DNA from: Pseudoalteromonas flavipulchra NCIMB 2033 = ATCC BAA-314
Lineage (GTDB): Bacteria > Pseudomonadota > Gammaproteobacteria > Enterobacterales > Alteromonadaceae
Reading direction: 5' to 3'
NCBI GenBank assembly: GCA_000814665.1
Contig: JWIH01000017.1
Coordinates: 62,001 to 126,000, forward strand
DNA length: 64,000 bases
Position 1 is the stretch's first letter. Each line of letters opens with the position of its first letter. Position numbers and translations under genes: made by a program. A model generated the notes under the pieces. It did not search any database. It was not told where the DNA came from and was given only the letters and a program-made list of their open reading frames with translations. Shown here in pieces: positions 3,840 to 7,031 of the stretch.

Positions 3840-5198
3840 TTACTTAAATATTTTATCCGCCCACTTAGTCAAGCCTGCAGTAACACTACCAAAGTTATCC
3901 CCGTTCACCATTTCAATATCACCAATTTGCTGTGCAAGCGTTGCCTTGAGTAACGGTGATTGCGCGCTACCGCCAGTCAGATAAATTACATCGGGCTTTG
4001 ACCCCGCTTGATGAATGGCTTCTTTCGCAAGCATGCCCATCTGCTCTAAGTTCGACATGACCGACTCGGCAAAATCTTGCTGCGTAAATTCAGAGGTTAA
4101 CTGTGGCTCAATAAAACCAAGATTGGCATTAAACTTTGCTTGTTCAGAGAGTGCTATCTTACCAAGCTCACCTTCACGAACCACTTGATGGGTAAGTTTG
4201 TTCTGTTGAATGTGAAGTAAACGCGCCAGCTTTTGCGGCTCGGCGACATCTCGCAACATGCTCTGCAATTCTCGCGCTAATTTATCGCTGTAGAAGTCTA
4301 GTTGAGACTGAATATCATTGATTTTACATGCCTGCCAATACAGTTGACTAGGCATCGGCAAACCTGAACTCATGTTAGAGCCTAGACCACACAACGGCAT
4401 TAATTGGTGATAAGCAAGTGCAATATCTAAATCGTTACCACCGATACGTTTACCCGTATGCGCTAAAAAGTCTTGCTGGCGCTGTGTATTATTGCGATAG
4501 CTTGGCCCCATTCGGACAAACGAACAATCGCTAGTACCACCGCCGATATCAACGACCAGCACAAGTTTATCTTGCTGAAGACGACTTTCATACTCAATCC
4601 CCGCTGCGAGCGGTTCGAAGAGAAAATCCACTTCCTTAAATCCTGCTCTTTTTGCAGCGGTAGTAAGAATATTAACCGCCTGTTGATTACTTTCTTCTCC
4701 GCCGACGGACTGAAAATTAACAGGTCGACCAATCACAGTGTCGGTAATGGACTGTTGCAGCTGCGACTCGGCACGGCGCTTAATCTCAACCATCATCGCC
4801 GCAGCAATATCTTCAAAGAAGGCGATTTGTTGAGATTTAAGCCCAACCGCCCCAAAGAAGGACTTAGGTGATTTAACAAAAAAACCTTCTTCGGGAAATT
4901 CAATATACTCAGAAATTGCCGCTTGACCAAAAAAAACGCCCGCTTCATGTGCTTCTAAATCGAGATCGCGCTTAGCTTGCTGCGCTACCGTTAGCAGCCC
5001 TTGGCGAGACTGCGTATAGACTGGATCTGGTTTACTCAGATGACGGTTAACAAATGCAGGAATTAACGCATTGTGCATCGCATACATAGTCGAAGGCAGG
5101 TAATATTTATCTTGCTCGAGACGCAGTAAGTCCACTTCACCATTTTGCATAACGCCTATCGCACAATTAGAACTTCCGTAATCAAACCCGACTTTCAT
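3840..5198 (-). CDS. yegD: Hsp70-family chaperone, YegD-like
   Basis: 452 residues, close to E. coli YegD (about 450). The actin-like ATPase motifs are present: phosphate-1 loop FDYGSSNCAIGV at residues 5-16, phosphate-2 VVDIGGGTSDCSFVRMG, and a C-terminal YLTGGSAQSPL adenosine-site motif. The C-terminal substrate-binding domain of DnaK is missing, as in other YegD proteins. Its client is unknown. The ribosome site GAGG lies 6 nt before the ATG. The first about 20 codons and the leader are duplicated twice upstream in the 205-bp array, so its promoter context is unusual. Confidence 0.93.
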   Translation of the reverse strand: MKVGFDYGSSNCAIGVMQNGEVDLLRLEQDKYYLPSTMYAMHNALIPAFVNRHLSKPDPVYTQSRQGLLTVAQQAKRDLDLEAHEAGVFFGQAAISEYIEFPEEGFFVKSPKSFFGAVGLKSQQIAFFEDIAAAMMVEIKRRAESQLQQSITDTVIGRPVNFQSVGGEESNQQAVNILTTAAKRAGFKEVDFLFEPLAAGIEYESRLQQDKLVLVVDIGGGTSDCSFVRMGPSYRNNTQRQQDFLAHTGKRIGGNDLDIALAYHQLMPLCGLGSNMSSGLPMPSQLYWQACKINDIQSQLDFYSDKLARELQSMLRDVAEPQKLARLLHIQQNKLTHQVVREGELGKIALSEQAKFNANLGFIEPQLTSEFTQQDFAESVMSNLEQMGMLAKEAIHQAGSKPDVIYLTGGSAQSPLLKATLAQQIGDIEMVNGDNFGSVTAGLTKWADKIFK

Positions 5199-5262
5199 TC
5201 TCTACCTCAAACTGCTGAAAAGTCGCGAAGTGTATCATGGTTGTCGTTATTGTCAGATGAAT

Positions 5263-5403
5263 TTATCTAGGTTCCAGCGCCATTAATTGGCTTGTTGTGA
5301 AAAGTATAGTGGAATAAGCCTGTTGGCTCTCCGTCTCCACCATTTTGCATAACACACTAGGCATTGCACAATGAGAGCTTCCGTAATCAAACCCGACTTT
5401 CAT
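5263..5403 (-). pseudogene. 46-codon chimeric ORF (YegD start fused to GGDEF-protein tail), copy 1
   Basis: Open frame of 46 codons starting with the same ribosome site and first ten codons as YegD (MKVGFDYGSS). It crosses the duplication junction and continues in frame into a segment resembling the GGDEF C-terminus (ETESQQAYST against ETGIQQADSA). It then shifts frame and ends at TAA. It is most simply a by-product of the duplication; translation is possible because the yegD initiation region is intact. Confidence 0.5.
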
Positions 5404-5467
5404 TCTCTACCTCAAACTGCTGAAAAGTCGCGAAGTGTATTATGGTTGTCGTTATTGCCAGATGAAT

Positions 5468-5608
5468 TTATCTAGGTTCCAGCGCCATTAATTGGCTTGT
5501 TGTGAAAAGTATAGTGGAATAAGCCTGTTGGCTCTCCGTCTCCACCATTTTGCATAACACACTAGACATAGCACAATGAGAGCTTCCGTAATCAAACCCG
5601 ACTTTCAT
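5468..5608 (-). pseudogene. 46-codon chimeric ORF, copy 2
   Basis: Second copy, exactly 205 bp away, with the same start, junction and stop. The predicted peptide differs from copy 1 at one residue (Ser instead of Pro at position 15). The shared junction and shared 5-nt indel indicate that one copy arose from the other. Confidence 0.5.
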
Positions 5609-5676
5609 TCTCTACCTCAAACTGCTGAAAAGTGGCGAAGTGTATTATGGTTGTCGTTATTGCCAGATGAATTTAT

Positions 5677-6708
5677 CTAGGTTCCAACATCCTTAATTGG
5701 TTTGTTGTGGAAAGCATAGCGCACACTGTCAGATTGCTTGGCTTGATACATAGCGGAATCTGCCTGTTGGATCCCAGTCTCGATGTCGAGGTTATTAAAT
5801 AGACTGACGCCGATACTAATCCGACAACTTAGCTTATTGCCTTCAAAGAGATAGGGTTTATCTACCTTGTTGATTATTTGCTGGCAGATCCCAACCACAT
5901 GAGATTCGGCTTGAGGCTGTTGCGGAGATAAGTGAGTGATTAAAATCACAAACTCATCGCCTCCCCAACGGATCACCACATCATCTTGGCGTACGCTAGC
6001 ACACAAACGCTGGGCAACCGCCTTGAGTAACTGATCCCCCACATGGTGGCCATGCAAGTCATTTACTTTTTTAAAATCGTCAAGGTCCAAAAACAAGATT
6101 GCGCTGTAACTACCAAGCTGTTGACCTACATGGAGTTGCTCCATCAATCCATGCTGAAGAACATGGCGATTCGGTAATTCGGTTAACTGGTCATGATACG
6201 CCAACTTCTCAGCTTCGAGATACTCCAACTTACGGTCATTGATATCCCGAGATAACACGATAAAACGTGTTTCAGCATGATTATCGCTTGCAGTGACAAC
6301 CTTACGGGCGATAGAGACCTCAAACCAACGCTCACCAACCGGTGTAGACAAGTGAATATGGCTACCATGTGAATAGCCGTTAACTTTTGCTTCCCGTAAT
6401 GCCTGCATCACTATTTTAGCGGCTTGCTCTGGCATCACTTCAGTCACCGTATGGCCAATCAATTGTTCTGCAGGCGCGACTAACAACTCAGGGCGAAGTA
6501 TTCTGGCGTCCCAGTGCCGCCCCTCTTCATCCAGTTCAAACATCAAATCCGGCATCGCACTTAATGTCGACGCCAATTCCTCATAGCTTGGTTGCGCCAA
6601 AGCTTGAGTGCGGGCCATACGTCGGTCCTTAACCATGAGGCGTTGCAACATCCTGTTCCATAATTCTATAAACTTGAACTTTGCAATTTGCAATTTGAAA
6701 CATGCCAA
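5677..6708 (-). CDS. PAS-GGDEF diguanylate cyclase
   Basis: 343 residues. A PAS-like sensory domain (about residues 45-160, SAMPDLMFELDEEG to FIVLSRDINDRK) precedes a GGDEF domain (about 165-335). The catalytic motif GGDEF is intact at 249-253. The RxxD product-inhibition site is present at 240-243 (RQDD), five residues before it, so an active, feedback-inhibited cyclic-di-GMP synthase is expected. No membrane segment is obvious. The true start may be one of the later Met codons (about residues 20-31), because the first 20 residues look unlike a domain. Its 3' end is part of the 205-bp array. Confidence 0.92.
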   Translation of the reverse strand: MACFKLQIAKFKFIELWNRMLQRLMVKDRRMARTQALAQPSYEELASTLSAMPDLMFELDEEGRHWDARILRPELLVAPAEQLIGHTVTEVMPEQAAKIVMQALREAKVNGYSHGSHIHLSTPVGERWFEVSIARKVVTASDNHAETRFIVLSRDINDRKLEYLEAEKLAYHDQLTELPNRHVLQHGLMEQLHVGQQLGSYSAILFLDLDDFKKVNDLHGHHVGDQLLKAVAQRLCASVRQDDVVIRWGGDEFVILITHLSPQQPQAESHVVGICQQIINKVDKPYLFEGNKLSCRISIGVSLFNNLDIETGIQQADSAMYQAKQSDSVRYAFHNKPIKDVGT

Positions 6709-6774
6709 TGAACACTGCTCATCTACGGCTATCGTTATAAAAATAATATACCAATTTTATGAATAATGACTAAT

Positions 6775-6972
6775 TAACCTGAGCTGCGGATAATTAATGC
6801 CTTTCTAGCAGCCAGTTTTAGCGCTAACTGCGTTGAATTCACTTCCAATAGCCAGCTATTGGTGCGTAAATTCGCCTTGTTTTCCCTAAAACTCTCTGGC
6901 TAGACAAGGAAAAAACTAAGTTGTTCTTTAGAAACAATGAGTTTGAACATTCCTTATCCAAACCTCAGGTTA
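6775..6972. mobile_element. MITE-like element, copy 1
   Basis: A 198-bp non-coding element bounded by inverted TAACCTGAG and CTCAGGTTA; in this copy the inverted match extends to 13 bp. Inside, TCTAGCAGCCAG and CTCTGGCTAGA pair, and a central hairpin CCAATAG-CCAG-CTATTGG lies at the middle, so the strand could fold into one long structure. A near-identical copy lies at 14310-14507. No transposase is encoded, so it would have to be moved in trans. It fills half of the 398-bp gap 6709-7106; the rest holds the promoter at 7032-7059 and no gene. Confidence 0.85.
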
Positions 6973-7031
6973 ATTACCGACTGCATCATAAAAAATATTT
7001 TCAAGTCATTGGCTTTGAAGGAGAAAAGCAA

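What the first reader, a model, noticed from the sequence alone, without database searches (positions are those of the whole stretch)
5141..5782. Exact 205-bp tandem array spanning the yegD/GGDEF gene junction
Three units repeat the start of yegD, its ribosome site, the gap, and the tail of the GGDEF gene. The last two units are exactly 205 bp apart and share the same chimeric junction and the same 5-nt indel. This is a frozen tandem duplication across a gene boundary, with amplification after the first event. It triplicates the yegD initiation region and puts three leader copies in front of yegD, so copy number could change by slippage or recombination and alter expression.
Basis: partly seen in the sequence, partly recalled or inferred. 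Interest (0 to 1): 0.75.

Follow-up and report, generated by a model that had tools for sequence, protein, structure and literature searches.

The report
Old tandem array of yegD promoter
In this marine Pseudoalteromonas genome the predicted promoter and first codons of a chaperone-like gene, yegD, stand three times in tandem; four related species carry the same kind of array in differing copy number, and as most of the outer promoter copies have changed at conserved letters it is likely an old duplication with a minor effect, not a recent switch.

Summary
The repeat is real. Three copies of a 71-nt yegD leader plus the first yegD codons lie 205 bp apart on the minus strand, separated by two 98% identical chimeras of a yegD start and a GGDEF-gene tail; both carry a 5-nt insertion relative to yegD. 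It is neither an assembly slip nor recent as a whole: 5 of 101 examined Pseudoalteromonas genomes, the window's included, have one or two extra cassettes at this junction. The chimeric spacers differ by 8-17% between species, about as much as silent sites of yegD; only the window's third unit is young. The leader holds a predicted promoter whose core is complete in 77 of 92 genomes outside the clade. The copy next to yegD keeps that core in 5 of 5 array genomes, while 5 of 7 outer copies have lost its TG or the -35 spacing. Best reading: a single-locus minisatellite born by partial tandem duplication, expanding and contracting probably by recombination, with the proximal promoter likely still driving yegD. 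Against plain decay, the outer leaders evolve more slowly than their spacers, so selection for retention is possible but unproven.

The parts
3840..5198 (-). yegD-like gene, 452 aa, Hsp70 family
Evidence: ORF; Pfam HSP70 E 5e-19 at residues 129-262; relatives in 102 of 108 genus genomes.
5199..5269 (-). Proximal leader copy (ig1): predicted -35 CTGACA, 16 nt, extended -10 TGaTACACT, GC-rich discriminator, GAGG ribosome site (the last recalled as a motif)
   Evidence: Promoter-like site 5256-5229; core TGATACACTTCGCGAC as in G018, G072 and G046
5263..5403 (-). Inner chimera b: yegD start fused to a shortened GGDEF tail, open for 46 codons
   Evidence: 5266-5403 translated; stop codon at 5263-5265 read
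5404..5474 (-). Middle leader copy (ig2), with CTGGCA and TAaTACACT: -35 and extended -10 altered
5468..5608 (-). Inner chimera a: as chimera b, 2 differences in 108 spacer sites, open for 46 codons
   Evidence: 5471-5608 translated; stop codon at 5468-5470 read
5609..5679 (-). GGDEF-side leader copy (ig3), with the two changes of ig2 and one more in the discriminator; begins with the GGDEF stop codon
5677..6708 (-). PAS-GGDEF gene (343 aa from the first TTG), true 3' end intact
   Evidence: ORF; Pfam GGDEF E 1.1e-44 and PAS_4 E 2.6e-8

Best explanation
The array is a single-locus minisatellite of yegD leader-and-start cassettes (each with a predicted promoter), likely born once by a partial tandem duplication across the GGDEF/yegD junction in an ancestor of several Pseudoalteromonas species and since then lengthened and shortened, probably by recombination or replication slippage between the near-identical 71-97-nt blocks. 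Shown: the structure, its presence in five species, two chimera types, copy-number differences between species, and old spacers with a young third unit in the window. Inferred: the recombination mechanism, and that the cassette touching yegD is the working promoter while most outer copies are weaker, so that yegD would get a longer leader with one or two short ORFs of no function. Whether selection keeps the array is open.
For: The 5-nt insertion is shared by both chimera types: type A in G000 (twice), G045, G075; type B in G044, G075 and, with an N in it, G071. Units are 205 bp (A) and 173 bp (B; 175 with two Ns in G071). An extra cassette was found in 5 of 101 genomes (G083, at a contig edge, left out), all close relatives of the window. 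Spacer differences between species 0.079-0.167 against yegD four-fold-site differences of 0.128-0.176 between the window and the other four array genomes: roughly as old as the splits. The window's inner chimeras differ at 2 of 108: the last amplification is young. G072 and G018 show one clean cassette without scar. Promoter core complete in 77 of 92 genomes outside the clade against 0.005 per shuffled set. The proximal copy has the core in 5 of 5 array genomes; of 7 outer copies 4 have TA for TG and 1 (G071) lost the -35 spacing by a 9-nt deletion. Type A ORFs: nonsynonymous against synonymous differences 13:3, 9:2, 6:3 in three pairs, and G075 type A is stopped at codon 7.
Against: Outer leader copies differ between species at only 0-3 of 71 sites while the type A spacers differ at 11-16 of 108 in the three pairs tested (Fisher p 0.030, 0.0099, 0.0036; not independent; G071, whose outer copy has a deletion, was left out). 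That is slower than the spacers and asks for constraint or gene conversion. The TA change is seen in outer copies of G000, G044 and G075 but in none of the ten single or yegD-side copies compared, which speaks against free conversion; it also makes a CATAAT word, so it might be a changed promoter and not a weaker one. Two of 7 outer copies have an intact core. Type B ORFs differ by 4:4, no clear sign either way. Outside the clade a -35 is poorly kept: the best of four spacings matches TTGACA at 4 letters in 72, 3 or fewer in 17, and 5 in 3 of 92. The promoter scan of 2 kb finds 5 sites where shuffles give 3.8. Repeats of this size are expected to be lost, yet five species keep them. Trees of yegD, GGDEF, gyrB and rpoB disagree on branching, so one gain with one loss cannot be told from one gain with up to three losses.
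Confidence: 0.66

Rival explanations
1. Selected copy-number tuner: the array is kept because extra promoter/leader cassettes change yegD output, and recombination gives heritable high and low variants, as proposed for variable repeats before fpg1 of M. tuberculosis.
For: Old array kept in five species although 101-bp tandem repeats are unstable in E. coli (PMC8378479, passages) and a single copy could not regrow by the same route (inference); outer leaders evolve more slowly than the spacers; a link of repeat length and expression is reported for Mtb fpg1 (PMC2734929, passages).
Against: 5 of 7 outer promoter copies are changed at conserved positions, both in the window; no within-species copy-number data; G072 lacks the array.
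Confidence: 0.2
2. Leader-peptide device: the chimeric 34-46-codon ORFs are translated and control yegD by coupling or attenuation.
For: Each inner unit has the yegD ribosome site and start; the ORF is open in both window copies, G045 A, G044 B and G075 B; a 39-aa type A relative is recorded from P. maricaloris; type B differences are 4:4.
Against: Type A differences are mostly nonsynonymous; G075 type A is stopped at codon 7; types A and B end in different frames; no terminator-like site in window 4900-6900.
Confidence: 0.06
3. Assembly artefact, or a purely recent duplication in one strain.
For: The window's genome is a 25-contig draft.
Against: Independent assemblies of other species, three of them (G044, G045, G075) listed with 2 contigs, hold the same chimeric junctions.
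Confidence: 0.03
4. The array spread between species by recent homologous recombination and was not inherited vertically.
For: Gene trees of the locus and of gyrB and rpoB disagree in places, and chimera types A and B are scattered over the tree.
Against: Spacers differ by 8-17% between species, too much for recent spread; G071/G075 pair in the gyrB+rpoB and yegD trees, G000/G044 in the gyrB+rpoB and GGDEF trees.
Confidence: 0.1

Closest known systems
MIRU-VNTR / ETR-F repeat array upstream of fpg1 in the M. tuberculosis complex (PMC2734929, passages seen)
   Same: Variable tandem repeats filling a gene junction up to a start codon, lineage-restricted, with a short junction in related species.
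   Different: MIRUs are reported scattered in 41 places (same passages); the yegD array matches only its own locus strongly in its genome and is built from the ends of its two flanking genes.
Tandem repeats lost by recA-independent template switching (101-bp model in E. coli; PMC8378479, passages seen)
   Same: Direct repeats of about 70-100 nt, clean single-copy state in relatives, repeat-number changes.
   Different: The laboratory repeats are unstable; this array has lasted through several species splits.
Extended -10 promoters and GC-rich discriminators, the latter discussed for rRNA promoters under ppGpp/DksA (PMC9304144, passages seen)
   Same: TGnTAnnnT followed by a GC-rich stretch before the likely start, widespread in the genus.
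   Different: No evidence here of ppGpp control; the likeness is of sequence only.

Membership tests
Single-locus minisatellite / VNTR | Head-to-tail near-identical units | tested here: met
   Spacing 205 and 205, TRF score 1020
Single-locus minisatellite / VNTR | Copy number varies between strains of one species | not testable with these tools
   One genome per species is held; variation between species is shown
MIRU | Same unit dispersed at many loci | tested here: not met
   In its own genome the 701-base query has one full match (itself) and two weak matches of 41 and 30 bases
MIRU | Unit with a small ORF overlapping the ends of flanking genes (recalled) | tested here: inconclusive
   Chimeric ORFs exist; type A changes look unselected, type B is unclear
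sigma-70 extended -10 promoter | TGn before the -10, conserved across relatives | tested here: met
   the motif was chosen by eye from the same set
sigma-70 extended -10 promoter | Transcript start at the predicted place | not testable with these tools
   No transcript data
RNA thermometer / start-codon hairpin | Leader folds better than shuffled sequence and pairs over the start in relatives | tested here: not met
   z +1.27, +1.19, +1.69; a like leader word stays while the start region changes in other species; no Rfam match up to E 1 in window 4800-6100

The most novel reading that the evidence does not exclude
The array is a selected, self-adjusting expression dial for an Hsp70-like chaperone: recombination adds or removes promoter-start cassettes, the outer cassettes being reshaped into a second class of promoter (CATAAT in place of the extended -10), and the array has been kept through several species splits because cells that collapse to one cassette lose the ability to vary.
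Probability: 0.15. Interest if true: 0.7.

Novelty: new member of a known kind. Interest (0 to 1): 0.36.

Why it matters
It offers a dated case in which a partial tandem duplication over a gene junction, usually thought short-lived, has lasted through several species splits, with single-copy relatives as natural controls. Whether such arrays are junk on the way out or copy-number dials can be tested here with reporters carrying one, two or three cassettes. It also points to a genus-wide predicted promoter in front of the little-studied Hsp70 relative YegD.

Tried and rejected
Start-codon hairpin / RNA thermometer: the leader word CGACTTTTCA could pair with TGAAAGTCG over the start, but folding is weaker than in shuffles and a like word is kept in species whose start region differs. 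Known RNA family: none up to E 1 in window 4800-6100. Genome-wide class of gene-junction arrays: TRF found many arrays of period 47-498 in 1,023,242 bases, about 19% of the genome. Of 153 local repeat pairs, 16 span an ORF edge: 2 at yegD, 6 at L185, 3 at L193, 5 at L231. I looked closely only at L193, whose two small ORFs have no Pfam match. Leader peptide: type A changes look unselected. Viral copies: 0 exact matches of one 27-base leader pattern in viral contigs. Relatives of the mini-ORF: 2 proteins, one of them the window's own.

Literature: eight answered searches. None of the papers listed is about this array by title or abstract start, but the lists were capped (15 of 66; 10 of 15; 12 of 26; 5 of 13); two searches found 0 papers. 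This does not show that it is unpublished. The scan of named genomes returned 5 loci, four of them relatives in this genus.

The first survey script was wrong (query overlapping subject, some minus-strand loci not turned) and was redone. The gyrB and rpoB tables and trees mixed strands and were redone; the yegD and GGDEF parts stand. In one search the start-codon pattern matched 10 of 101 and position 1500 was used for the rest; later placed the starts at 1494-1500 in all 101.

Full report
What is there. On the minus strand a PAS-GGDEF gene (6708-5677) is followed by a yegD-like Hsp70-family gene (5198-3840). Between them the sequence reads: true GGDEF tail, leader copy ig3, chimera a, ig2, chimera b, ig1, true yegD start. 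Leader copies are 71 nt from the stop codon to the base before the start; spacing is 205 and 205. Each chimera starts with the first yegD codons, has a 5-nt insertion relative to yegD, and runs into a shortened GGDEF tail; both are open for 46 codons. TRF score 1020 and 97% identity over 205 bases rule out chance.

Organism. No call named the window's own species.

Relatives. yegD relatives occur in 102 of 108 genus genomes at E up to 1e-50. Leaving out G083, whose contig breaks at the yegD start, 5 of 101 have a further start cassette upstream: G000 (the window), G044, G045, G071, G075. Chimera type A (205-bp unit) is in G000 twice, G045 and G075; type B (173-bp unit, 175 with two Ns in G071) in G044, G071 and G075; G075 holds B then A. 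Both types share the yegD-side insertion. A second shared mark is weaker: the tail reads CCTATTAA in G045 A, G075 A, G075 B and G071 B and CCTATAAA in G044 B, but CCAATTAA, as in most true tails, in the window's A copies. G072 and G018 have a single clean cassette. In G083 the cassette after the GGDEF gene carries a true-type yegD start before the contig ends, so an array is unlikely but not excluded. A relative of chimera A is recorded from P. maricaloris (39 aa, 82% identity over 83% of the query).

Age. Type A spacers differ at 11-18 of 108 sites between species, type B at 6-8 of 76. yegD four-fold sites differ from the window by 0.128-0.176 in the other four array genomes, 0.111 in G072, 0.200 in G018. 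So the chimeras are about as old as the species splits. The two window chimeras differ at 2 of 108: the third unit is young. The gyrB+rpoB tree joins G000 with G044, G071 with G075, and G018 with G083, but single-gene trees place G018, G083, G045 and G072 differently. The number of losses lies between one (G072) and three.

What the cassette is. In 92 genomes outside the clade (G046 and G039 also left out), 77 hold the complete core TGNTANNNTNSSSGRC within 70 nt of the start, against 0.005 per shuffled set. The core was picked by eye from the same sequences and the shuffles keep only base composition, so the figure is generous; the invariance of its fixed letters in the matrix is partly built in. 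The -35 is poorly kept outside the clade (best match to TTGACA 4 letters in 72, 3 in 16, 5 in 3, 2 in 1 of 92). The promoter scan marks CTGACA-16-TACACT with TG at 5256-5229, one of 5 sites in 2 kb where shuffles give 3.8; the conservation, not the scan, carries the claim. G046 and G039 keep both hexamers while the spacer between them changes.

Outer against proximal copies. The yegD-side copy has core TGATACACTTCGCGAC in 5 of 5 array genomes; G075 has one -35 change, and in G071 an N lies in the spacer. Of 7 outer copies, 4 (G000 two, G075 one, G044 one) read TA for TG, 1 (G071) has a 9-nt deletion that takes away the -35 spacing though its core scores well (20.6), and 2 (G075 middle, G045) are intact. 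The G000 pair is one recent duplication and the shared TA may be one old change, so these are few independent events. The change also makes CATAAT, so a reshaped promoter is not excluded. G083, with a single seen copy, has a lower-scoring core too (16.2), so a weak core is not peculiar to outer copies.

Against simple decay. Outer leaders differ between species at 0-3 of 71 sites, slower than the spacers (G071 left out). Either they are constrained or they exchange with the proximal copy; the TA change, found only in outer copies of three species, argues that exchange is not complete. This, with the survival of a structure expected to be unstable, is why selection for retention keeps 0.2.

Mini-ORFs. 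Type A differences are mostly nonsynonymous (13:3, 9:2, 6:3), type B even (4:4). G075 type A stops at codon 7, and types A and B end in different frames: no clear sign of a conserved peptide.

Literature. From passages only: Mtb fpg1 has variable repeats ending at its start codon, with longer arrays linked to higher expression (PMC2734929); 101-bp tandem repeats are deleted at high frequency in E. coli (PMC8378479); GC-rich discriminators typically go with ppGpp inhibition in E. coli (PMC9304144).

Verdict. A real, old, lineage-limited gene-junction minisatellite; ordinary in mechanism, unusual in age.

Noticed in passing
L039:6365-6628 (G044), and the window's own genome: A 264-bp element with inverted ends GGGCCTGTTGA and CTAG on both sides sits at the GGDEF stop codon in G044; 16-42 matches at E up to 1e-10 in each of 5 clade genomes searched, 20 in the window's (not all candidates were scored in four of the five). 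It looks like a MITE family.
   Followed up: partly
L039:6627-7730 (G044): In G044 the C-terminal part of the GGDEF gene plus the 264-bp element is itself tandemly duplicated (981-bp unit), a second duplication at the same junction.
   Followed up: partly
L185:14481-16163, L209:7569-8070, L215:9110-10100, L222:10796-11701, L224:16176-17504, L225:18294-18944, L226:3189-7693, L231:731-1363: Many tandem arrays with periods of 47-498 bp, mostly outside ORFs of 100 aa or more, in 1.02 Mb of the window's genome; several share short stretches with each other.
   Followed up: partly
window 5229-5216 and 101 yegD upstream regions: A word like GCGCGRCCTTTTT follows the extended -10 before yegD in much of the genus: a GC-rich discriminator and a pyrimidine run near the likely transcript start.
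   Followed up: partly
window 6771-6976: A stretch bounded by 29-nt inverted arms (83% complementary, 148 nt between), upstream of the GGDEF gene; G044, G045, G071, G072 and G075 match both sides but not most of the inside. Looks like a small mobile insertion in the window's lineage.
   Followed up: no
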